This document shows positions 1-10,949 of a stretch of DNA of 64,000 nt, one piece after another; the first letter of the stretch is position 1, and each line of letters opens with the position of its first letter. This DNA is from Gammaproteobacteria bacterium (GTDB lineage Bacteria; Pseudomonadota; Gammaproteobacteria; Natronospirales; REEB76). A program made the position numbers and the translations under genes. Where the stretch lies: contig DASVOS010000017.1 of NCBI GenBank assembly GCA_036383255.1, positions 1-64,000 on the forward strand. The letters are read 5' to 3'. The notes beneath the pieces were generated by a model. It was given only the letters and a program-made list of their open reading frames with translations, did not search any database and was not told where the DNA came from.

Positions 1-564
1 GTCAATATCGGCGGCATCACCACCAACGGTATCGACCTGGCGACCCACTACAAGCTGCCCTCGACCTCCGTGGGCGACTTCAAGGTGGGCCTGGATTGGA
101 CGTTCCTGCGCAGCTTCGTGCAGGTCGTGCCGAACAGCGCCGATCCGACCGGCTTCACTCCCACGGAGTTGGCCGGCACCACGACGGCGTTCGGCGGGTT
201 CCCGAAGCAGAAGGCGAACCTGAGCCTCAACTGGAACTACGGCGACTTCACCGCGGTGTGGAATGTGCAGTACATCTACTCCATGACCGAGGGTTGCCCG
301 AAGGCCGGCTTCGCGGATGGCCTCTGCTCCAATGTGGGGCTGACGGCGGCCGATTCGTCGAACTACGTTGGCAAGACGATCTACCACGACTGGCAGGTTG
401 GCTACCATGTGGACAGCTGGAACACCGACCTCACGTTCGGTATCCGGAACGTCTTCGATAAGCAGCCGCCGACCGCGCTGACGGCGTTCGCCAACAGCTT
501 CCTGCCGGCGTTCTACCGTGTACCTGGCCGCGAGTTCTACGGCCGTGTCTCGGTGAAGTTCTAA
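1..564 (+). CDS. TonB-dependent receptor, C-terminal part (5' end outside window)
   Basis: The reading frame is open from the first base and stops with TAA at 562-564, so about 187 C-terminal residues are present and the plug domain and TonB box lie upstream of the window. The visible part shows alternating aromatic beta-strand sequence typical of a 22-strand outer-membrane barrel. It contains the motif FGIRNVFDKQPP, which is characteristic of TonB-dependent receptors, and ends in aromatic strand residues FYGRVSVKF with a terminal Phe, the usual signal for outer-membrane insertion by the BAM complex. Such proteins import siderophores, cobalamin, saccharides or peptides; the substrate cannot be read from this fragment. 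A strong terminator follows, so it is probably the last gene of its unit. Confidence 0.9.
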   Translation, partial: VNIGGITTNGIDLATHYKLPSTSVGDFKVGLDWTFLRSFVQVVPNSADPTGFTPTELAGTTTAFGGFPKQKANLSLNWNYGDFTAVWNVQYIYSMTEGCPKAGFADGLCSNVGLTAADSSNYVGKTIYHDWQVGYHVDSWNTDLTFGIRNVFDKQPPTALTAFANSFLPAFYRVPGREFYGRVSVKF

Positions 565-826: not shown

Positions 827-1534
827 TCAGGTGCGCAGCCGCAATACCGGGTCATCGCCGCCGGTGCCTGCCTCGCGCACCCACGCATTGAATGCCACCG
901 TGATACGCTCGCGCTGCCCATAGTAGGGCGCCACCTCGTGCATCAGGTAGGAGGGGAACAGCAGGAGCTGGCCCGCGCGCAGGTTGAAGGCGATGTCACC
1001 CATGCCGTAGGGCGGCTGCCAATGGGCGTTGCCGGGGTCCAGATACATGCCGGCGGTCGTCCGGGCCTCGGAGAAACGCAGGGCACCGCTGTTGGGCTTG
1101 TCCGGAACCGGCACCGAGTCACCCGGGTCCACGCAGTAGACACCAGACCAGGAGGCCATGGGATGGTTGTGCTGGGCGGTGTAGCCGCCGTGGCGCGTCA
1201 GGTGGTACCAGCTGTGGTGATGGATGCGCAGCTGCTGCATCTCTTCCATCTTGTAGCCATTCAGCTGCTGCACCACGTAGCCTACGTGCTGCAGGCAGAA
1301 CTGAGCCAGCGCCTGGATCTCCGGTTCCGGGTTCTCGAACAGCGAGAAGTCGCTCTCGTACACCGCCACCTTCATGACGGCGGTAGGAGCTGAGCTGCGC
1401 CTGCGGCCCGGGTCGGCTTCCCAGCGCAGGAACAGCTCACGCAGGCGCGCGTTGAGCGCCCCCGGATCCGGCAGGGCGCTGTCCACGATCGGCGAGGCGA
1501 ACGCCGGGAAGATGTTGATGCGCGGTTGTGCCAT
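827..1534 (-). CDS. putative 2OG-Fe(II) oxygenase (TIGR02466 / 2OG-FeII_Oxy_5 type)
   Basis: A 235-residue protein with the double-stranded beta-helix signature of the TIGR02466 family. QHNHPMASWSGVYCV places the proximal ligands at His122 and His124. LFPSYLMHEVAPYYG gives the distal His199. The following RERITVAFN supplies Arg210, the expected 2-oxoglutarate carboxylate contact. The proximal motif is HxH instead of the commoner HxD, a pattern I associate with this family. Members are predicted to hydroxylate an unknown substrate using Fe(II), O2 and 2OG; no signal peptide is seen, so it should be cytoplasmic. It is divergent from the oxygenase starting at 1624. The start ATG at 1532-1534 was chosen because MAQPRINIFP matches the usual family N-terminus (a short strand leading into the fold). 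Confidence 0.82.
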   Translation of the reverse strand: MAQPRINIFPAFASPIVDSALPDPGALNARLRELFLRWEADPGRRRSSAPTAVMKVAVYESDFSLFENPEPEIQALAQFCLQHVGYVVQQLNGYKMEEMQQLRIHHHSWYHLTRHGGYTAQHNHPMASWSGVYCVDPGDSVPVPDKPNSGALRFSEARTTAGMYLDPGNAHWQPPYGMGDIAFNLRAGQLLLFPSYLMHEVAPYYGQRERITVAFNAWVREAGTGGDDPVLRLRT

Positions 1535-1623
1535 GGCTGACCTTCGCGTGCGGCTTGCAATGCCGTGCCGGGGTATTCATATTAAAGGGCGGAATCCAGG
1601 GGAACAACGGCTTCGGAGGCGGC
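1535..1623. promoter_or_regulatory. divergent promoter region between two oxygenase genes
   Basis: Only 89 bases separate the two divergent start codons, so both promoters must lie here. It contains the AT-rich run TATTCATATTAAA near 1572-1584, a possible -10 region, and a GGAGG ribosome binding site at 1615-1619 for the plus-strand gene. The exact promoter hexamers are not certain. Confidence 0.45.
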
Positions 1624-2181
1624 ATGCAGGCATCCCGCAGGCATCTCATCGACGGTCGGGAAGTGCGTGTCTACGACGGCCTCCTGTCCCAGCAGGACAT
1701 CCTGCGCTTGACCGCCATGTTCGACGATGGCGCCTTCACCCGCACTGAATGGGCCCGGCCCGAGACAGCCGCGGTACGCCACTGGGCGCTGAACATCCCC
1801 CATGATACCGCCCTCAAGCTGCCGGTCTATGCGCCGACCCTGCAGGCCGCCCAGGATACGGTGCCCGGCGGGGCCTACAAGGTATACCGCTGCTACTGCA
1901 ATCATGCCGCCTACGGCGACATGCTTTTCACCCACACCGACTGCGAACCGGGAGGCAAGGACCTCACGGCACTCTGGTACGTGGCGCCGCAATGGGACTT
2001 GGAGTGGGGTGGAGAGACACTGTTCTTCGACAAGGACCGGGACGCGGCAGCGGTGGTGAGCCCGCGGCCGGGGCGCCTGGTGATCTTCGATGGCACCATC
2101 CTGCATGCGGGCCGGCCGCCCAACCGGGCCTGCTACGCGCCGCGCTATACCCTGGCTTACAAACTCGAGCCGGCGGCCTAG
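1624..2181 (+). CDS. 2OG-Fe(II) oxygenase, prolyl 4-hydroxylase-like
   Basis: A 185-residue protein with the classic facial triad: His104 and Asp106 in FTHTDCEPGG and His161 in GTILHAGRPP. Arg174 in APRYTLAYKL is the likely 2OG-binding residue. The order YKVYRCYCN...H.D...WGGETLFF...RPGRLVIFDGTILHAG follows the prolyl 4-hydroxylase/PKHD group. The start at 1624 is chosen because GGAGG lies 4 bases upstream; a longer in-frame start at 1528 would overlap the divergent gene and adds unrelated sequence. No signal peptide is present. Its 3' end nearly touches the end of the converging TPR-sulfotransferase gene (5 bases apart). Substrate unknown; hydroxylation of a protein side chain or free amino acid are both possible. 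Confidence 0.85.
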   Translation: MQASRRHLIDGREVRVYDGLLSQQDILRLTAMFDDGAFTRTEWARPETAAVRHWALNIPHDTALKLPVYAPTLQAAQDTVPGGAYKVYRCYCNHAAYGDMLFTHTDCEPGGKDLTALWYVAPQWDLEWGGETLFFDKDRDAAAVVSPRPGRLVIFDGTILHAGRPPNRACYAPRYTLAYKLEPAA

Positions 2182-2186
2182 CCGCC

Positions 2187-3908
2187 TCAGGCCTCGTAGC
2201 CGAAACGCTCGATGTAGGGCCTGAGGACCGGAAGCACCCTCTCCAGCTGCGAGCGGTAGCGGCGCCAGCGCTCGACCGCATCGGCATAGACGGGCTGGAC
2301 GACCTGATGATAGCTCGGAGTGTAGATGCGGCCACGCTTCTTCGCATGCTGGATATGGTCCTGCATGGCCTCTTCCCATCCCAATCCCAGGAAAGCCAGC
2401 AGCCGCCGCAGCTCAGCGTCTTTGTCGGCGATAAGCGCCTCATAGCGGAGTTCATGCACCTCGAGGGGCAGCGCATCACGAAAGTGGATCCACAGGTCCA
2501 TGACGCAGCTATACGTCAGCGCGGTATTTTCCAGGTCCCGGAAATTGTCCAACGCCGGATTGTTGCCGAAAGCCTGCATGAAACAAGACAGGGCCACATC
2601 GCACGGATGGCGCAGCGCAAATATGAAGCGGGCGCCCGGGAACAGGAGCTGGATGAAGGCCGCATGCGCCGAATAGAAAGGGTTCTTGTCCACCACCAGC
2701 ATGTCATGCGCGACCGGCCCTAGCAGTTTGTCGGCCTCCTGCCAGTAGGCGGCGCGCAGATCCCTTATCTGGTCCGGCGTGAGCGCAGCCAGGGCCTGCG
2801 GATACCCGCCTGGGAGACGACGCACCTGCTCCAGCACCTTGTCGATGATCGGTTCTTCCTCGAGTACGTTGATGCCGGGGTGCGCGTCCAGCATCGTATC
2901 CAGCAAGGTGGTCCCCGATCGCGGGAAACCGACCAGGAACACCGGGCTCCGGCGGTCTTCGAGCGGGGGCTTCGGCCAGCCGCGGGGTGTGGCGCCGCTG
3001 AAGAACATCAGGCTCTTCTGCAGGGAGCTGACGAACTCGTCGGCGCCGCTTCGCAGATGAGGCCAGACCTCCTTGCTCAAGGCATTACCCGCCATGAAGT
3101 GCGCATAGGCGTCATCTTCGCGGCCTAGCTGGTCATAGTCACGGCCCAGCTCGAATTCCATGGAGCGCCGCACCACAGGGCTAAGGTCATCGCGCTTGAG
3201 CTGTGCTTCAAGCCGCGCCGCCGATCCGGCGTACTCTCCGCGACGCCGTTCGCAACGGGCCGCCACGAGGTGCAGGTTCTCCTGCCGCGGATCGGTCCCG
3301 AAACCTCTGGATAGGGCCCATTCAGCTTCGTCCAGGAGGTTGGTCTGTTCATAGAGAGTGGCGAGGTTCGACCAGACATCCGCATTGCCAGGGTCGAGTT
3401 CGGTCGAGCGACGATAGGCATCGATCGCGCCTACATAGTCATGCTTGCGATTCAGGGCTATCGCCAGGTTGTTGTGCACCACCGCCTCGGCGGGGGCGAT
3501 GCGTATCGCTTCGTTGTAAGCGGCGATCGCTCCGTCGACGTCACCCATCTCCTTGAGTGCGAGGCCGAGGCTGTTCAGCAGGTTCGGGTCATGGCGTCCC
3601 GCCTGCTGTGCGGCTTGATAGGAGGAGATCGCTTCATGCCAGCGCTGGGATTGGAAATACGCGTTGCCCAGTGTCTCGAGCAGGCCGCCGTCGCGGGGCC
3701 AGCGGCGGACCGCGGCTTCAAGGCGCGGCAGAGCCCGCCCGGCGGCGCCCTGGTCAAGCAATAGGCGGCCGGTCATGTATAGGGCGCCGACGTGCTCCGG
3801 CTCGCGGCGCAACAGGTCTTCAGCCATGCCGAATGCGCCCGCGGCATCGCCCCTCTCATAGGCATCGACTGCCGCGTTGAACAGCTGCGCCGTGGAGACC
3901 TCGCTCAC
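2187..3908 (-). CDS. TPR-repeat sulfotransferase
   Basis: A 573-residue protein. Residues 5 to about 280 are tandem tetratricopeptide repeats (for example LLNSLGLALKEMGDVDGAIAAY), a protein-binding solenoid. Residues from about 320 form a Sulfotransfer_3-type domain: the 5'-phosphosulfate loop VGFPRSGTTLLD (326-337) and the 3'-phosphate motif RHPCDVALSCF (433-443). The reaction is transfer of sulfate from PAPS to a hydroxyl or amine. TPR-linked bacterial members resemble protein-tyrosine sulfotransferases, so a protein or peptide acceptor is plausible. The GTG at 3906-3908 was chosen because it forms a GTGA overlap with the upstream fusion gene; another GTG at 3929 would add seven residues. 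The coupling suggests the two products are made together. Confidence 0.85.
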   Translation of the reverse strand: MSEVSTAQLFNAAVDAYERGDAAGAFGMAEDLLRREPEHVGALYMTGRLLLDQGAAGRALPRLEAAVRRWPRDGGLLETLGNAYFQSQRWHEAISSYQAAQQAGRHDPNLLNSLGLALKEMGDVDGAIAAYNEAIRIAPAEAVVHNNLAIALNRKHDYVGAIDAYRRSTELDPGNADVWSNLATLYEQTNLLDEAEWALSRGFGTDPRQENLHLVAARCERRRGEYAGSAARLEAQLKRDDLSPVVRRSMEFELGRDYDQLGREDDAYAHFMAGNALSKEVWPHLRSGADEFVSSLQKSLMFFSGATPRGWPKPPLEDRRSPVFLVGFPRSGTTLLDTMLDAHPGINVLEEEPIIDKVLEQVRRLPGGYPQALAALTPDQIRDLRAAYWQEADKLLGPVAHDMLVVDKNPFYSAHAAFIQLLFPGARFIFALRHPCDVALSCFMQAFGNNPALDNFRDLENTALTYSCVMDLWIHFRDALPLEVHELRYEALIADKDAELRRLLAFLGLGWEEAMQDHIQHAKKRGRIYTPSYHQVVQPVYADAVERWRRYRSQLERVLPVLRPYIERFGYEA

Positions 3909-5737
3909 AGCCGGTTGTCCAATGAGCACAGCTGCGACTGCAGGGCACCGAGGCCCTCCAGCACTGGCTTGAGTGCTTGCTCATGCCGGCGCCACTTGTC
4001 CGGCATGGGCGCGCTCAGCGTATAACGCGAGGGCGGCAGGCCTCCCGCGAGGGAGCGCTGTAGTTCCGCCGGAGGCGGCAGGCCGATGAAGGCGGCGGCA
4101 CGCTGCACCACGCCGGCGGGATCACGCACCAGCTCGGCGTAGTCCAGCACTCGCCAGCGTTCCCGCGGGAGTTTGGATAGTTCATCGACTATGGCTTGGT
4201 TCGCCGCGCGCCATTGCGCGGCTACTACGTCCGCGGGCGGCCTGCCGCGCAGTTCGCGCCAGCCGTGCGGCAACAGCAGGGACCAGGGCGGGCCCGGCCA
4301 GTCAGGCAGGTCCGGATAAGTGACGAAGCGGCCCGACTGCCATGCATCCAGCATGCTGCCCAGGTTCTCCGCGGCACTGCGGTGTATGAACAGGAACACC
4401 GCGTCCGGGAACAGCTCCTTCAGGAATGGGATGCGCAGCGCGTTCTTCGGCGTCTTCTCCAGGAGGCGCACGCCCGGTGGAGGCTCGTCCAGTGTCAGCC
4501 AGCGGCGCCCCTGGTGGTCGCGCAGCTGCAAAGTGAAGTTCCTGAGGACACCATCGCGGTTATCGGGCGTGGCATCCTCCCCGGTGAGCGAGTTGGAGGC
4601 GAAACCGCGGTTTCGGGGCGAGAGTGCGGCGATACTCTCGATCTCCGCATGGCTCTCATCGCCTAGATTCCACAACCCGGGGATGCGGGCGAGGGTCTCG
4701 AACAGCAGCGTGCTGCCGCTGCGCGGCGCAGCCACGACGATCACCGGCCGCGTGAATGCCGGCACCGGCGCGGCGGCGAGCCAGGCCTGGAAACCTTCGA
4801 ACATGCCGGACAGGAACTTCTGCAGTACCACGTTCACCTGGGTGCTGTTGCTCGGCAAGCGCAGTCCGGCACCGAGCTGGCCGGCGCGCTTCAACGTATC
4901 CTCGATGAGCACGGCGTAATGGGCATGATGGCGCGGTTCACCGCCGAAGCGCGCCCACAGCGCCTGCCATTCGTTGGCGAAGTCCAGCATGGCGTTCTCG
5001 AGGCCGGCGTGTTGGGCAGTGCGGGCTGGGGCGCTCCGCAGGTCGCCTACCAGTTCATGCATCGTGCCCTTGACCGCGGCGGGGTGCGCCAGCGGCTCTG
5101 GGGCATGGGACTCGAACAGGAGAGGCGCGTCGGCGCCTTCCCGGTATTCCACCGGCTGGGTCGGCAACTGCGCCGCCGCGGAGGTCACCGCACCGGTGGA
5201 CGCGAGCTGCCAGAAGGCGGCGCTGCCTACCGTATCCATCACCAGGTGCACGCGGCGGATGCCGCTGCGGTTGACCACATAGTGCGGACGCCAATTGTCG
5301 AAGATCCACGCCTCACCCTCGCCCATGTGGATTTCGACCCCATCGCAGTTGAAGCGCACGCTGGGGTCCGTGACGATCGGTACATGGATGCGGATGCGGT
5401 CGCGCCAGTAGAAGTCGATGTCGGTATGGGGCGTCACCTCTGCACCCGGTTCCAGGCGCATCAGGCGCGAACGGCCCAGCACGGTCTGGAAGCTCGCCAT
5501 CACCTGGCGCAGGTAATCGCACTGGGCCAGACGCGGGGCGGGTGCCATGGCGCCGTGGGTATCGTCGTTCTCACCGCCGCGGTGGGAGACCAGCACCAGC
5601 GCCGAGTTCCCGGCGAAGCCCTGGGGATGGGCCCGCCACTCGCTCTCCGGGATGCGGTCCACCTCGGCCTTGAGGCGGGCCACGTCGAAGCGCAGCGGAA
5701 GCTTGATGAAAGGGGCGGGGAGACGCATGCGGGCCAT
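3905..5737 (-). CDS. fusion: aspartyl/asparaginyl beta-hydroxylase domain + sulfotransferase domain
   Basis: A 610-residue two-domain protein. Residues about 1-175 form an Asp/Asn beta-hydroxylase-type cupin: RLEPGAEVTPHTDIDFYW with His104 and Asp106, IHMGEGEAWIFDNWRPHYVVN with His152, then RRVHLVMD with Arg162 as likely 2OG contact. Residues about 330-610 form a sulfotransferase: the PAPS loop VVAAPRSGSTLLFE (334-347) and the later FLFIHRSAAENLGSML as 3'-phosphate motif. The two are joined by a roughly 150-residue helical linker. The start at 5737 leaves 37 bases to the divergent gene at 5775; ATG at 5728 is an alternative, and the longer frame upstream runs into the divergent gene. The architecture directly couples a hydroxylating with a sulfating enzyme. 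Substrate unknown. Confidence 0.83.
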   Translation of the reverse strand: MARMRLPAPFIKLPLRFDVARLKAEVDRIPESEWRAHPQGFAGNSALVLVSHRGGENDDTHGAMAPAPRLAQCDYLRQVMASFQTVLGRSRLMRLEPGAEVTPHTDIDFYWRDRIRIHVPIVTDPSVRFNCDGVEIHMGEGEAWIFDNWRPHYVVNRSGIRRVHLVMDTVGSAAFWQLASTGAVTSAAAQLPTQPVEYREGADAPLLFESHAPEPLAHPAAVKGTMHELVGDLRSAPARTAQHAGLENAMLDFANEWQALWARFGGEPRHHAHYAVLIEDTLKRAGQLGAGLRLPSNSTQVNVVLQKFLSGMFEGFQAWLAAAPVPAFTRPVIVVAAPRSGSTLLFETLARIPGLWNLGDESHAEIESIAALSPRNRGFASNSLTGEDATPDNRDGVLRNFTLQLRDHQGRRWLTLDEPPPGVRLLEKTPKNALRIPFLKELFPDAVFLFIHRSAAENLGSMLDAWQSGRFVTYPDLPDWPGPPWSLLLPHGWRELRGRPPADVVAAQWRAANQAIVDELSKLPRERWRVLDYAELVRDPAGVVQRAAAFIGLPPPAELQRSLAGGLPPSRYTLSAPMPDKWRRHEQALKPVLEGLGALQSQLCSLDNRL

Positions 5738-5774
5738 TGTACCGGGGAGGGATGTCCCACGGTACACTTCGCGT

Positions 5775-6419
5775 ATGGACCTTGGCTTCGACAAGCGAGC
5801 ACACGTCACCACCTGCCGCAGGCTGCCGCTGCCGGTGGACAGCGCACGCTTGCAGCGTGAGGTGGCGGCGCTGCCGGCGGAACTGTGGGGCAACGTACGC
5901 GCACCGGTGCACCGCGAGACCCAGTCGTTGTTCCTCAAGGGCCATGCACCGGCATTGGGCATTCCGGAAGACCCAGAACAGCCGGCCCTGGCGGCCTGCC
6001 CCTACATCCGCGAGCTGCTCTACGGCCTCCTGCCGGGCGTGCCAGGCAAGTGCCTCCTCGCTGCGCTACGTCCCCGCGGCATCGTCTATCCCCACATGGA
6101 CGTGGAGAACGACTATTTCGTCCACTCCTTCCGCGTGCACCTGCCGGTGTTCACCAACCCGCAGGTGCGCCTCTACTGCAACGGGCGTTTCTTCCGCATG
6201 GCAGCAGGCGAGGTCTGGACGCTGAACAACCTCGCGCCCCATGCGGTAGTGAATGATCATCCCGACGAAGCGCGGGTGCACCTCATCTTCGACGTCTTTC
6301 CGTCGCCGGAAGCGGTCGCGCGCGTGGATGCGGCGGGGGAGGCGGAAGGCATGGAGGAACCGGAGTTGTTCGCGCGGCTCTCGGGTACGCGGCCGGCCGG
6401 CGCGCAGGTGATGGACTAG
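5775..6419 (+). CDS. aspartyl/asparaginyl beta-hydroxylase family protein
   Basis: A 214-residue stand-alone relative of the N-terminal domain of the divergent fusion protein. The triad is His107 and Asp109 (VYPHMDVEND) and His156 (NNLAPHAVVN), with Arg167 (ARVHLIFDVF) for 2OG. The shared order, including an FRVHLPVFTNPQVRLYCNG strand matching IRIHVPIVTDPSVRFNCDG of the fusion, suggests the two are paralogues facing each other across a 37-base intergenic gap. ATG 5775 is the only start downstream of the fusion gene's start that keeps the conserved N-terminus. No signal peptide; cytoplasmic. Substrate unknown. Confidence 0.82.
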   Translation: MDLGFDKRAHVTTCRRLPLPVDSARLQREVAALPAELWGNVRAPVHRETQSLFLKGHAPALGIPEDPEQPALAACPYIRELLYGLLPGVPGKCLLAALRPRGIVYPHMDVENDYFVHSFRVHLPVFTNPQVRLYCNGRFFRMAAGEVWTLNNLAPHAVVNDHPDEARVHLIFDVFPSPEAVARVDAAGEAEGMEEPELFARLSGTRPAGAQVMD

Positions 6420-6455: not shown

Positions 6456-7160
6456 TCAGAATCCGTAACCGTAGCTCTCGATGATGGCCCAGTCCCGCTC
6501 CGCCACCAGTTCCTTCAGTTCCCCATCGTAGTAGTTGCGGTAGTCACGCCGCGGCGAGGCGTTGACCGCCGGTGCCTCGGCGATGGCTCGCGAGAGTTCC
6601 GGCGTCACCGTGGTGCCGCAGCTCTCCAACAGGCCGGGTAGCTCCTCCCGGAGCTGCTCCATGCGCCCCATGCGCAGGCCGGTGGGGGAGCCGCCGACGA
6701 AGCAGAGATACCGTGTGAGCCAAGTGAGATAACCGGCATCGGGGTCGGTGAAGCCGCGCATCACGGCGCGCGTGATGCCGCTGCCCTGGTTTCCTTCGCG
6801 GCTCTCGGGCAGCGACTGCGCGATCTCCTCGCGCATCGCCGCTTGCAGCGGGTGGCCGAGGTGCAGCAGGTTGTGGATGGTGTCGTGGAAGTCCGCTCGG
6901 CCCTGCTCCGAGACGGCGCGGAAGATAGGGTTACGCTGCGGATTCGCCAGGTTGAAGGCGTACCAGGACACATACCAGTCCCAGGGATTGCGGATGAAGG
7001 CGAAGGCAGGCAAGGCCTTCAGCTCCGCCGGCGCCTCGCTGCGCGGCAGGTGATAACCGATCATGCGCGCACCGGGCAGGTGAGCGAGCAGCAGGCGGTT
7101 CACGAACTGCCCGCCGGTCTTGTGCACGTGGATGAACAGGAACTTCGATGTCGCGATCAT
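6456..7160 (-). CDS. sulfotransferase family protein
   Basis: A 234-residue protein beginning with a strand and the loop FIHVHKTGGQFVNRLL (residues 9-24). This is the HxxKTGG form of the PAPS-binding loop seen in the carbohydrate-type Sulfotransfer_2 families. RNPWDWYVSWY (57-67) is the 3'-phosphate motif. Acceptor unknown; this subgroup often sulfates glycans. ATG at 7160 was chosen because it puts the loop at the very N-terminus as usual for the family and leaves 22 bases after the upstream gene; the frame extends to 7250 but overlaps that gene with unrelated sequence. It is probably co-transcribed with the TPR-hydroxylase upstream. Confidence 0.8.
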   Translation of the reverse strand: MIATSKFLFIHVHKTGGQFVNRLLLAHLPGARMIGYHLPRSEAPAELKALPAFAFIRNPWDWYVSWYAFNLANPQRNPIFRAVSEQGRADFHDTIHNLLHLGHPLQAAMREEIAQSLPESREGNQGSGITRAVMRGFTDPDAGYLTWLTRYLCFVGGSPTGLRMGRMEQLREELPGLLESCGTTVTPELSRAIAEAPAVNASPRRDYRNYYDGELKELVAERDWAIIESYGYGF

Positions 7161-7182: not shown

Positions 7183-8499
7183 TCAGGTCGCGCCGCCGTA
7201 GCTGCGGTTGAAAGCCGTGATGCCGGCCACCAGCGCGGTGATGCCCTCACGTTCCGCTGCCGTCACCGCCGGGTTCCATAGGTCCAGGATGAGCACGGCA
7301 CGGGTGTCCGGGCTTCGGTTCCACGCTTCGTGCTGGAAGCTGTCGTCGAATATGAGGCACTCGCCCTCCTTCCAGCCGCGGGTCTCGTGACCCACGCGGA
7401 TGGCGCAGTCGGGAGGCACGATCAGGGGGAGGTGGACCACCAGTTTGTAGTTGGCGAGCCCGAAATGCGGCGGGATGTGCGCGCCCGGTTGCAGGATGGA
7501 GAACAGCGCCTCCGGAGCATGCCCCGGTATCGCAGGCGAAGGCACGGCGGCCAGTGCTTTCAGGGTGGCGGGACAGCGTGCGGCGTTCGCCTCGACGCGC
7601 TGTCCGGCCTTGTATATATGGAAGGAGGTCCAGGCGGCGGACCCGTTCAGTGCGGCCCACTGCTGCGGAGGAGTGCCTTGGGGTATCTGCACGTACGGCG
7701 CCATGCCTTGCCCAGAGACCATCGCCGCCTCGAGTTCCTGGCGTATCGCGCCGGTCGCCGCTTCCAGCTCCGGTACCCACGGGAACTCGGTCCGGTCGAA
7801 GAAGGCGCGTGGCGGCACACCCGGCATGTAGATGTACGCCGGCTGTTGCAGCGAATGCTGGTGCTGTGGAGGACGGATGCCGGCGTAGATCTCCGCCGCT
7901 TCGCGAACCCGCACCAAGGCTTCAGGGCCGTGGCGTTCGAGCACCGGAGCCAGTTCGGCCTCGATGAGCATCAGTTGCGCCTTGCTGAGGCTCGCAGCCG
8001 CGTGCATCACCAACCGGCGGGTGGGGGAACTCGCATCGTCGTTGCGCAGCACCGCGTCCGGGTTCGGGAATTGGCGCCATGCCTGCCAGTATGCCGCCAA
8101 GGCTTCATCCTTCCGCCCCAACTCCTCCAGCACCACGCCCTTATGCATGGCGGCGGTCTTGTGATCCGGCTTGAGCGCGAGGGCGCGGTCGAGGCAGGTG
8201 AGCGCCTGCTGCAAGTCGCCGCGTTCCTTGAGCACCAAGCCGAGGTTCTGGTGCAGGATCGCGCGGTCAGGCGCCGCGCGCAGAGCCTGTTCCAGGTAAG
8301 CCTGGCTCTGATTCAGTTCTCCGCGCCCGAGCGCCTGCACCGCCAGGAAATTGAGCGCACGCACATGGTAGGGCGCGGCCTCCAGGATCTGGCGGTATAT
8401 CTTCTCTGCTTCATGCAGGTCGCCACGCTCGGCCAGTTGTCTGGCGCTGTCGGCGAGCGTCTGTATCTGCCAAGCGGCTTCGGAGGCGGGCTGGTTCAC
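7183..8499 (-). CDS. TPR-repeat aspartyl/asparaginyl beta-hydroxylase (AspH-like)
   Basis: A 438-residue protein. Residues about 10-145 are tetratricopeptide repeats (AEKIYRQILEAAPYHVRALNFL and two more units). Residues about 285-410 are an AspH-type catalytic domain: LQPGAHIPPHFGLANYKLVVHL, WKEGECLIFDDSFQHEAWN and TRAVLILDLWNP. The metal ligands are His345 and His390; the place of the third, acidic ligand is Gly347. Animal AspH is known to have the same two-His arrangement with Gly in that place, so this is probably an active feature and not decay. Arg400 is the likely 2OG contact. TPR plus AspH also occurs in animal AspH, which modifies EGF-like domains; the bacterial target is unknown. Confidence 0.87.
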   Translation of the reverse strand: MNQPASEAAWQIQTLADSARQLAERGDLHEAEKIYRQILEAAPYHVRALNFLAVQALGRGELNQSQAYLEQALRAAPDRAILHQNLGLVLKERGDLQQALTCLDRALALKPDHKTAAMHKGVVLEELGRKDEALAAYWQAWRQFPNPDAVLRNDDASSPTRRLVMHAAASLSKAQLMLIEAELAPVLERHGPEALVRVREAAEIYAGIRPPQHQHSLQQPAYIYMPGVPPRAFFDRTEFPWVPELEAATGAIRQELEAAMVSGQGMAPYVQIPQGTPPQQWAALNGSAAWTSFHIYKAGQRVEANAARCPATLKALAAVPSPAIPGHAPEALFSILQPGAHIPPHFGLANYKLVVHLPLIVPPDCAIRVGHETRGWKEGECLIFDDSFQHEAWNRSPDTRAVLILDLWNPAVTAAEREGITALVAGITAFNRSYGGAT

Positions 8500-8556: not shown

Positions 8557-9618
8557 TCAGGGCGTGAGGGCCTGTTCCCCGGCCAATCCCGGGGAAGCCG
8601 CCCGGAACAGCGTCTCCGACCAGAGCAGGGCGGCGCGGAGTTCCGGGCCGTGGCGCGCGACGATGTCACGGCCTTCCGCATCGCGCTGGGCGCTGTCATA
8701 GGCGGAGAAAGGATCCTTGGCGTGGGTGTTCCACACCGGCCCCGCCACTGACGCCTCCGCGTCGGCAGCCGTGAGCGGCAGCTCCAGGAAGCCGGCGGCG
8801 GCCTGCACCATGGCGGCAGGTTCCGCCAGCAGCCGGGCGCTGTCGAGGCTCCTCAGCCTCGCTCCTGCGGCCGAGGCAAGCAACTCCTGGAACTTCAGCA
8901 TCTGCGCATGCCAGATCACCACGAGGGACTGCAGGTAGTCCAGGCGGTCCAGGGCGAGCGCGGGGAAGCGTCGCGCGTAACCCGTGTCCTGGTCGAAGAG
9001 CCGGAGCAGGGCCGGCGTCTTCTGCTTGGTGTCCTCGGTCTTCTTGAGGTTGGAGACCAGGAAGGTCTCCAGGTCCGAATGCAGCAACAGGCCCTTCGCG
9101 CGCGGGCGCAACTCCAGGGCCTCAGCCGCCAGGTTGTGGGCCACGTGGGTCGGCTTGATGAGCACCGACTCGGAGGGCTGCCAGGTCTTGGCCAGCAGCC
9201 TGAGCGCGAGGTCGAGCAGCTGCGGCCCCTGCGGGTACCAGGCCTGGCCGCGGGCCTGTACGCCGCGCTTGAGGTCCGCGATGCGGCGCAGCACCCAGGG
9301 TTCCCGGAGGGCCAGTACGCGTCCCTCCAGCTGCAGCGAACGCGCCAGCAGTGATGAGCAGCAGAAGGAGGAATGGAACAGGAAGGCGGGATCATGTTCC
9401 GGCGCCGGCTGGGCCGCGACGGCGCGGGCCACCGTGTCCAGCGGGAAGCCGTGCAGGCGGTCGCCGGTGTAGGCGATGCGGTTGTCCAGGAACGCCGAGA
9501 TGCGGAAGGTCTCGGGTGTCGCCTCCAGGAAATGCAGCTCGCCGCGCTGCATGTCGATGTCATACAGGTGCCAGGCGGGGTTGCGGGCGATGTCGTCCGC
9601 GGTGACGTCGAGGGCCAT
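8557..9618 (-). CDS. sulfotransferase-like P-loop protein, function unknown
   Basis: A 353-residue protein. Residues 79-96 read FLFHSSFCCSSLLARSLQ, placed like the PAPS loop of sulfotransferases but with HSSFCCSSLL in place of the usual PRSGTTLL. Downstream are helices and a C-terminal MVQAAAGFLELPL segment resembling the sulfotransferase tail. No classical RxP-type 3'-phosphate motif is obvious to me. Homologues with this loop are usually annotated as hypothetical or sulfotransferase-like. ATG 9618 begins MALDVTADDIARNPAWHLYDID, which looks like a natural N-terminus; ATG 9648 would add ten Pro-rich residues. It lies 57 bases upstream of the TPR-AspH gene on the same strand and probably shares its transcript. 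Confidence 0.65.
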   Translation of the reverse strand: MALDVTADDIARNPAWHLYDIDMQRGELHFLEATPETFRISAFLDNRIAYTGDRLHGFPLDTVARAVAAQPAPEHDPAFLFHSSFCCSSLLARSLQLEGRVLALREPWVLRRIADLKRGVQARGQAWYPQGPQLLDLALRLLAKTWQPSESVLIKPTHVAHNLAAEALELRPRAKGLLLHSDLETFLVSNLKKTEDTKQKTPALLRLFDQDTGYARRFPALALDRLDYLQSLVVIWHAQMLKFQELLASAAGARLRSLDSARLLAEPAAMVQAAAGFLELPLTAADAEASVAGPVWNTHAKDPFSAYDSAQRDAEGRDIVARHGPELRAALLWSETLFRAASPGLAGEQALTP

Positions 9619-9701
9619 GCCGGCTGCTCTGGGCGGCGGTGTTGGCATACTATATCAAGGAGTGTCACGCCTGATTTAGGGCAAGGGGCCGGCAGGGGAG
9701 C

Positions 9702-10949
9702 ATGAGCGAGCCAAGCGCCAAAGCCGATGCGCGCCAGCTGTTCCAGCAGGGCGCCGCCGCGTTCACCCAGCGCCGCTATGCCGAGGCGGAGCCGCTGCTG
9801 GCGCGCGCCGCGGAGGCGAGCGACGGCGAGGCCCAGAACCTCCTGGGCGTGATGTGCCTGAACGGCATGGGCGTAGCGCTGGACATGCGCCGCGCCGCGG
9901 CGCTGTTCGCCGCCGCTGCCCAGGACGGGCTCAAGGAAGCCCACTACAACCTGGCGAACCTCCTGTTCCATGGCCTCGGCACTGCCCGCGACGAGGCCGC
10001 TGCGCAACGGCACCTCGTCGCTGCCGCGCGCGCGGGCCACAAGCCGGCGCTGCGCTCCCTGGCTCAGGTCTACCACGCCGCCGGCGATGCCGGCCGCTGG
10101 CCTGCGCTCGCCACACATTGTTTCCGCCTCGCCGCCGAGGCTGGCGATCCCCTGGCGCAGTACAGCTATGGCCTGCGCCTGCACCGCGGCCACGGCGTGG
10201 CGGCGGATCCTGCCGCCGCATCCTATTGGTTCGCCGCCGCCGCCCAGGCGGGCATCTATCTCGCCCGCGCGCGCCTCGCCGGGATGCGTCCTCCGGGCGC
10301 GGCGCCGGCTTCCGCATCCCAGGACATGGGGGAACTGGAGCCTTGTCCCTTACCGGAACTGCCGGAGCCCAGGCCGGTGCGGGAAGTGGCGTTCATGTCG
10401 GAGCACCGGGCGGCCCTGGATGAATATCTGGAAGATCACCTCATCAACGTGGCGGCACCCAGGCTGGCCCCCTCCGGCGTGGTGGATCCCCATACCGGCG
10501 CGGCGGTGCAGTCGGAACTGCGCACCAGCCACTCCATGCACTTCCAGCCCTCCATGTACGACGCGCCGGTCTATCTGGCGCTGCGGCGCATCGCCCGCAT
10601 CGCCGGGCTGCCGGCCGGGCACGCGGAGCCCCTGGGCGTGCTGCGCTACGGCCCCGGCCAGGAGTACCGGCCGCACTACGACTACTACAGTGACGACCAG
10701 CATGAGGCGCAGCGCCTCGCCACCGTGTTCGTCTACCTCAACGACGTGGAGGAGGGCGGCGGCACCGACTTCCCGCGCCTCGCGGTGAAGGTGGACCCCG
10801 AACGGGGCAAGGCGGTGAAGTTCCTGAACTGCGATGCCGGCGGCAAGCCGAACCCCGACACGCTGCACGCCGGCCTGCCGGTGATCCGCGGCGAGAAGTG
10901 GCTCACCACCCTGTGGTTCTGGGACCGCCCCTTCCTCTGGTTTGGCTGA
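9702..10949 (+). CDS. Sel1-repeat prolyl 4-hydroxylase-type 2OG-Fe(II) oxygenase
   Basis: A 415-residue protein. Residues about 10-200 are Sel1/TPR-like repeats (AQNLLGVMCLNGMGVALDMRRAA; AHYNLANLLFHGLGTARDEAAA; AQYSYGLRLHRGHGVAADPAAA). Residues about 225-415 are a prolyl 4-hydroxylase domain: EYRPHYDYY with His325 and Asp327, GGGTDFPRL, then DTLHAGLPVIRGEKWLTTLW with His389 and the 2OG-binding Lys399. The Lys instead of Arg is the pattern of true P4H enzymes. GGGGAG lies just before the ATG at 9702. It is divergent from the sulfotransferase-like gene (83 bases between). Sel1 repeats suggest a protein partner or substrate. Hydroxyproline formation is the family reaction; the target here is unknown. 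Confidence 0.87.
   Translation: MSEPSAKADARQLFQQGAAAFTQRRYAEAEPLLARAAEASDGEAQNLLGVMCLNGMGVALDMRRAAALFAAAAQDGLKEAHYNLANLLFHGLGTARDEAAAQRHLVAAARAGHKPALRSLAQVYHAAGDAGRWPALATHCFRLAAEAGDPLAQYSYGLRLHRGHGVAADPAAASYWFAAAAQAGIYLARARLAGMRPPGAAPASASQDMGELEPCPLPELPEPRPVREVAFMSEHRAALDEYLEDHLINVAAPRLAPSGVVDPHTGAAVQSELRTSHSMHFQPSMYDAPVYLALRRIARIAGLPAGHAEPLGVLRYGPGQEYRPHYDYYSDDQHEAQRLATVFVYLNDVEEGGGTDFPRLAVKVDPERGKAVKFLNCDAGGKPNPDTLHAGLPVIRGEKWLTTLWFWDRPFLWFG

What the first reader, a model, noticed from the sequence alone, without database searches (positions are those of the whole stretch)
3905..5737. AspH-type hydroxylase and sulfotransferase on one polypeptide
The 610-residue protein has an intact hydroxylase triad (His104, Asp106, His152) and an intact PAPS loop at about 334. 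Fusion usually signals that two activities act in sequence on one substrate. This is the strongest single piece of evidence for the hydroxylate-then-sulfate idea.
Basis: partly seen in the sequence, partly recalled or inferred. Interest (0 to 1): 0.7.

Follow-up and report, generated by a model that had tools for sequence, protein, structure and literature searches.

The report
Conserved fused hydroxylase–sulfotransferase enzyme
One bacterial gene encodes two joined enzymes, one that adds a hydroxyl group and one that adds sulfate; the joined form recurs in many bacteria with both active sites intact and its separate relatives often sit side by side, so the two steps very probably work together on one still unknown target.

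Summary
Window 3905-5737 on the minus strand is one open frame (610 aa; real start probably Met4, 5728). It has an Fe(II)/2OG hydroxylase half (Pfam Asp_Arg_Hydrox) and a PAPS sulfotransferase half (Sulfotransfer_3). The AlphaFold model is confident (pLDDT 95, pTM 0.90) and both halves match solved enzymes. All 80 best relatives from named genomes are full-length fusions; the iron ligands, Arg162 and the key sulfotransferase residues are invariant in 81 of 81. Unfused relatives of the hydroxylase sit directly beside a sulfotransferase gene in 10 of 15 genomes (7 over Pfam's cut-off), so the pairing looks selected. Around the fusion lie more hydroxylases, sulfotransferases and a TonB-dependent receptor; another branch carries a third domain (TIGR03032) and sits beside beta-helix surface proteins. 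Coupled action on one substrate is well supported; that the sulfate goes onto the new hydroxyl is plausible but unshown. 'AspH-type' is only partly apt: the hydroxylase is nearer to proline hydroxylases and has a full HxD...H triad, unlike human AspH. No description was found in the open literature searched. The substrate is unknown.

The parts
3905..5737 (-). Fused hydroxylase-sulfotransferase, 610 aa as read (probable start Met4, 5728; 607 aa)
4802..5728 (-). N-terminal half (residues 4-312): Fe(II)/2OG hydroxylase domain with HxD...H...R (104/106/152/162) plus the helical region, matched to proline cis-4-hydroxylase over model residues 2-304
3908..4747 (-). C-terminal half (residues 331-610): Sulfotransfer_3 domain; PRSGST 338-343, E361, K428, R453, S461
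2187..3929 (-). TPR-sulfotransferase (TPR repeats + Sulfotransfer_3), overlaps the 3' end of the fusion gene by 25 nt
   Evidence: neighbour kept in relatives
5772..6419 (+). Small single-domain Asp_Arg_Hydrox hydroxylase, divergent from the fusion gene (HxD...H)
   Evidence: 46.8 bits; kept beside the fusion in relatives
6456..7160 (-). Small sulfotransferase of Sulfotransfer_2 type (weak match in the window; the Asticcacaulis and G440 counterparts are over Pfam's cut-off)
7183..8499 (-). TPR + Asp_Arg_Hydrox protein (domain types of human AspH, HxG motif)
1528..2181 (+). 2OG-FeII_Oxy_3 oxygenase (true start may lie further in)
827..1534 (-). 2OG-FeII_Oxy_5 oxygenase
1..564 (+). Probable C-terminal part of a TonB-dependent receptor, cut by the contig start; homologous stretches lie beside the same cluster in relatives, inside frames with receptor domains
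   Evidence: no Pfam match for the fragment itself
9702..10949 (+). Sel1 repeats + 2OG-FeII_Oxy_3 oxygenase, kept beside the cluster in close relatives

Best explanation
The gene encodes a bifunctional tailoring enzyme. The N-terminal half uses Fe(II), O2 and 2-oxoglutarate to hydroxylate a carbon of the substrate; the C-terminal half transfers sulfate from PAPS. The two act as a pair on one substrate, most likely with the new hydroxyl as the sulfate acceptor. The substrate is most likely a protein or peptide bound for the cell envelope: the TonB-dependent receptor or its cargo in this locus, beta-helix surface proteins in the TIGR03032 branch. Shown: two intact domains, conservation of both active sites, recurrent pairing in fused and unfused form, an APS kinase (PAPS supply) in the genome. 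Inferred: common substrate, order of the steps, same-site chemistry, envelope-protein substrate.
For: Both domains over Pfam cut-offs. AF2 model pLDDT 95.4, pTM 0.90. Structural matches: TPST1 (Z 17.1, rmsd 3.8, 227 aligned), CurM sulfotransferase (Z 17.1, 4.2, 223), hydroxylase 7v4m (Z 16.8, 2.1, 152), proline cis-4-hydroxylase 4p7x (Z 16.3, 2.8, 182). 80/80 best relatives fused. H104, D106, H152, R162, P338, R339, G341, E361, K428, R453, S461 invariant in 81/81, most at about 38-60% identity to the window protein. Unfused hydroxylase halves: a sulfotransferase adjacent in 10/15 genomes, 7 of them over Pfam's cut-off. Small hydroxylase + Sulfotransfer_2 pair beside the fusion in many loci; operon receptor - ST - AspH - TPR-ST - fusion in Asticcacaulis. 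The nearest solved sulfotransferase by profile is CurM (E 1e-18), which sulfates a beta-hydroxyl (PMC6274090): a precedent for hydroxyl-then-sulfate chemistry in this fold. APS kinase in the same genome.
Against: No substrate is known. A common substrate and the order are inferred from gene structure only. Many relatives (Brevundimonas, Rhodanobacter and others) lie alone among unrelated genes, so the receptor link is not universal. The receptors differ between branches. The hydroxylase resembles enzymes for free amino acids or small molecules more than protein hydroxylases. TPST-type sulfotransferases act on tyrosine, which needs no prior hydroxylation.
Confidence: 0.5

Rival explanations
1. 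Two separate marks on one substrate protein: the hydroxylase modifies Asp, Asn or Pro and the sulfotransferase modifies a nearby Tyr (TPST-like). The fusion co-localises them but the hydroxyl is not the sulfate acceptor.
For: The sulfotransferase half is structurally as close to TPST1/2 as to CurM. The beta-helix neighbours of the TIGR03032 branch carry repeats such as GGGIYFYDPDD with Tyr beside Asp.
Against: The nearest solved relatives by profile are the CurM and olefin-synthase sulfotransferases; CurM acts on a beta-hydroxyl. The Tyr context was noted by eye and not tested against background.
Confidence: 0.25
2. The substrate is a small molecule, lipid or carrier-bound amino acid; the enzyme makes a sulfated hydroxy metabolite, possibly one taken up or exported with help of the receptor.
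For: The hydroxylase half, including its helical extension, matches proline cis-4-/3-hydroxylases and a nucleoside-antibiotic hydroxylase best. Lipid and free amino-acid hydroxylases share the Pfam family (general knowledge). In Azospirillum a related hydroxylase is fused to an EamA transporter.
Against: No NRPS, PKS or other assembly-line gene was found among the recurrent neighbours annotated. TPR partners and beta-helix proteins speak for protein substrates.
Confidence: 0.2
3. A chance fusion of two unrelated activities without common function.
For: None beyond the general possibility.
Against: Long-term conservation of both active sites and recurrent adjacency of unfused relatives (binomial 3e-14 at an assumed 2% background).
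Confidence: 0.03

Closest known systems
L-proline cis-4-/cis-3-hydroxylases (PDB 4p7w/4p7x, 1e5r) within the Asp_Arg_Hydrox-type 2OG enzymes
   Same: HxD...H iron triad and 2OG arginine align; the helical C-terminal region is also matched (model 2-304); profile E 7.9e-14 to 4p7w
   Different: Stand-alone, act on free proline; no sulfotransferase domain
Human AspH (aspartyl/asparaginyl beta-hydroxylase)
   Same: Same Pfam family and fold (Z about 15, rmsd 2.8, 158-160 aligned)
   Different: Human AspH has TPR repeats and only two iron ligands (His679/His725, PMC6817910); the fusion has no TPR and keeps the Asp ligand
CurM and olefin-synthase sulfotransferase domains (4gbm, 4gox)
   Same: Nearest solved sulfotransferases by profile (1e-18, 1.3e-14); CurM sulfates a beta-hydroxyl intermediate (PMC6274090)
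   Different: Part of polyketide synthases, followed by a thioesterase; not fused to a hydroxylase
Tyrosylprotein sulfotransferases TPST1/2
   Same: Same fold (Z 17), aligned PAPS-site Arg and Ser and the KxP lysine
   Different: Eukaryotic, act on Tyr, single domain
Sulfotransferase joined to a 2OG-like domain in Eleftheria terrae (P0006, 708 aa)
   Same: Related sulfotransferase domain (42.6% over 330-583) on one chain with a second domain that has HxD...HxR
   Different: Second domain lies C-terminal and is of another family (PhyH only E 0.05); its identity as a 2OG oxygenase is likely but not confirmed

Membership tests
Asp_Arg_Hydrox (PF05118) | Profile match over the curated cut-off | tested here: met
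   56.4 bits against 22.6
Asp_Arg_Hydrox (PF05118) | Iron ligands HxD...H and the 2OG-binding arginine | tested here: met
   H104, D106, H152, R162 invariant in 81/81; aligned to proline cis-4-hydroxylase
AspH proper (animal type) | TPR repeats joined to the oxygenase domain and a two-His iron site | tested here: not met
   No TPR match; Asp106 present; human AspH uses His679/His725 only. The neighbour at 7183-8499 has TPR and HxG instead
Sulfotransfer_3 (PF13469) | Profile match over the curated cut-off | tested here: met
   73.6 bits against 27
Sulfotransfer_3 (PF13469) | PAPS-binding PRSGST loop and the 3'-phosphate Arg/Ser | tested here: met
   338-343, R453 and S461; R453 and S461 invariant in 81/81, aligned to TPST1
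TPST | Catalytic glutamate of TPST1/2 at the equivalent position | tested here: inconclusive
   E361 is invariant, but the profile alignment places it next to the TPST glutamate across a gap (TPST numbering from own knowledge)
TPST | Transfers sulfate to peptidyl tyrosine | not testable with these tools
   Needs an assay
CurM-type sulfotransferase | Acts on a beta-hydroxyl | not testable with these tools
   Nearest by profile, activity unknown

The most novel reading that the evidence does not exclude
A one-chain relay that hydroxylates an amino-acid residue of an envelope protein and sulfates that same hydroxyl, giving a sulfated hydroxy-amino acid as a protein modification, or an activated leaving group for elimination as in CurM chemistry. 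The surrounding cluster would be a multi-enzyme hydroxylation/sulfation system for a TonB receptor or its cargo.
Probability: 0.25. Interest if true: 0.85.

Novelty: new variant of a known kind. Interest (0 to 1): 0.6.

Why it matters
It links two modification chemistries in one conserved enzyme whose substrate does not seem to have been sought. A sulfated hydroxy-amino acid in bacterial surface proteins would be a new modification, and the clusters of hydroxylases and sulfotransferases beside TonB receptors would gain a testable role. It also yields a bifunctional biocatalyst candidate.

Tried and rejected
Two separate proteins or a frameshift artefact: rejected. Inactive second domain: rejected at the level of key residues. 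Conserved small precursor-peptide genes inside the cluster: not searched systematically; the window genes are tightly packed, which leaves little room. Literature on the fusion, on TIGR03032 or on such clusters: nothing relevant in the open library. TonB receptor as the universal partner: not supported, many loci show none among the conserved neighbours within 10 kb, and the Asticcacaulis receptor is of another type. TIGR03032/DUF4915 in the window's own genome and 19 relatives: none found. Eleftheria C-terminal domain against solved structures: no significant match to a 2OG enzyme. The distance between the two active sites in the model could not be measured (no coordinates).

Full report
Observation. 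The frame is on the minus strand, 5737 to 3905, 610 residues; homologues begin at the fourth residue, so 5728 is the likely start. Pfam finds Asp_Arg_Hydrox at 73-169 and Sulfotransfer_3 at 331-461, both well over cut-off. Codon-position GC (71/49/83%) fits coding in this frame.

Structure. With a 7-row alignment AF2 gave pLDDT 80; with 52 diverse homologues pLDDT 95.4 and pTM 0.90 over all 607 residues. The best structural matches are TPST1 (Z 17.1, rmsd 3.8, 227 aligned) and the CurM sulfotransferase (Z 17.1, 4.2, 223) for the C-terminal half, and a nucleoside-antibiotic hydroxylase (7v4m, Z 16.8, 2.1, 152) and proline cis-4-hydroxylase (4p7x, Z 16.3, 2.8, 182, model 2-304) for the N-terminal half; human AspH follows at about Z 15. 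A profile of the family finds the CurM sulfotransferase (1e-18), the olefin-synthase sulfotransferase (1.3e-14), proline cis-4-hydroxylase (7.9e-14) and TPST1 (1.5e-13).

Conservation. A scan of named genomes kept 80 loci, every one with a single frame covering both halves, from gamma-, alpha- and betaproteobacteria and from records labelled Cyanobacteriota, Acidobacteriota, Planctomycetota, Myxococcota and Actinomycetota (MAG labels may be wrong, e.g. a record titled Klebsiella). In 81 of 81 sequences the iron ligands (104, 106, 152), Arg162, the PAPS-site residues Pro338, Arg339, Gly341, Arg453 and Ser461, and Glu361 and Lys428 are identical. Among the 11 other genomes of the window's own family, 5 hold the fusion in one frame (one cut by a contig end) and a sixth holds its two halves at contig ends. 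Nearest named relatives are Natronospirales MAGs (59% identity).

Unfused relatives. The profile was run on 398 genomes of the phylum. The 15 best stand-alone hydroxylase hits outside the window's genome were fetched in order of score, without regard to neighbourhood. In 10 a sulfotransferase gene is directly adjacent (overlapping or within about 100 bp): L129 and L130 next to TPR-sulfotransferases; L132, L134, L136, L137 and L139 next to Sulfotransfer_3 proteins over Pfam's cut-off; L135, L141 and L142 next to proteins that match below it. With an assumed 2% background this has a binomial probability of 3e-14 (the background is an assumption, not measured). G440 shows the unfused series sulfotransferase-2, AspH, TPR-sulfotransferase, hydroxylase half, the same order as in Asticcacaulis sp. 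DW145, where the last gene is the fusion and a TonB-dependent receptor stands in front. This supports coupling independently of the fusion.

Neighbourhood. The window locus holds, besides the fusion, a TPR-sulfotransferase, a small AspH-like hydroxylase, a small Sulfotransfer_2-type protein, a TPR-AspH protein, three further 2OG oxygenases and the probable end of a TonB receptor. Close relatives keep the set, and Steroidobacteraceae, Solimonas, Hydrocarboniphaga and others have receptor, TPR-sulfotransferase, 2OG oxygenase, TPR-AspH and fusion in a row. The small hydroxylase plus small sulfotransferase pair occurs beside the fusion in lineages scattered over the tree (7 changes on the tree, at least 4 forced by well-supported branches). 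Other lineages have the fusion alone.

TIGR03032 branch. Twelve of 80 fusions carry a third domain, DUF4915/TIGR03032; in Diaphorobacter it is a separate overlapping gene. Ten of the twelve lie within 2 kb of a beta-helix protein (choice-of-anchor-Q, polymorphic-membrane-protein repeats, sometimes IPTL-CTERM) against none of 68 others (Fisher 4e-11; the loci are related, so the value overstates independence). This points to surface proteins as partners or substrates in that branch.

Mechanism. The simplest reading is a relay: Fe/2OG hydroxylation, then sulfate transfer from PAPS on the same substrate. An APS kinase, which makes PAPS, is present in the genome. CurM shows that this sulfotransferase fold can use a beta-hydroxyl (PMC6274090). 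What is not shown is the substrate, the order, or that the two marks share a residue; Tyr sulfation plus Asp/Asn/Pro hydroxylation remains open, as does a small-molecule substrate.

Novelty. Each half is of a known family. No account of the fusion was found in the open-access library, which lacks most subscription journals. I class it as a new variant of a known kind.

Noticed in passing
window 7183-8499 (-): TPR + Asp_Arg_Hydrox protein with an HxG motif where most 2OG enzymes have HxD/E; HxG is kept in all 14 homologues examined. Human AspH has the same domain types and a two-His iron site, so this may be a bacterial counterpart.
   Followed up: partly
window 8557-9648 (-): 363-aa frame without Pfam match that looks by eye like a degenerate sulfotransferase (HSSFCCSSLLARSL loop); 28-33% homologues beside the cluster in L036 and L038.
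   Followed up: no
L115 (G000:C4:95000-114900): A second locus in the same genome with a stretch related to the window's TonB receptor fragment and three TPR-sulfotransferases.
   Followed up: partly
G000:C18:318774-345304: Group of several further sulfotransferases around an APS kinase gene (329979-330428).
   Followed up: no
L122:14707-16830: Eleftheria terrae protein with a related sulfotransferase domain followed by a different domain with HxD...HxR; possibly an independently formed sulfotransferase-oxygenase fusion in reverse order.
   Followed up: partly
L125:8001-9782: Azospirillum lipoferum plasmid gene joining a related hydroxylase domain to an EamA transporter, inside a flagellar gene cluster.
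   Followed up: partly
L061:7232-9652: GTPase + APS-kinase (CysN/CysC-type, PAPS synthesis) gene directly beside a solitary fusion gene.
   Followed up: no
L047, L048, L052, L067, L076, L078, L099, L102, L108, L114: Beta-helix surface proteins next to TIGR03032-bearing fusions; repeats in those read often hold GGGIYxYD-like motifs.
   Followed up: partly
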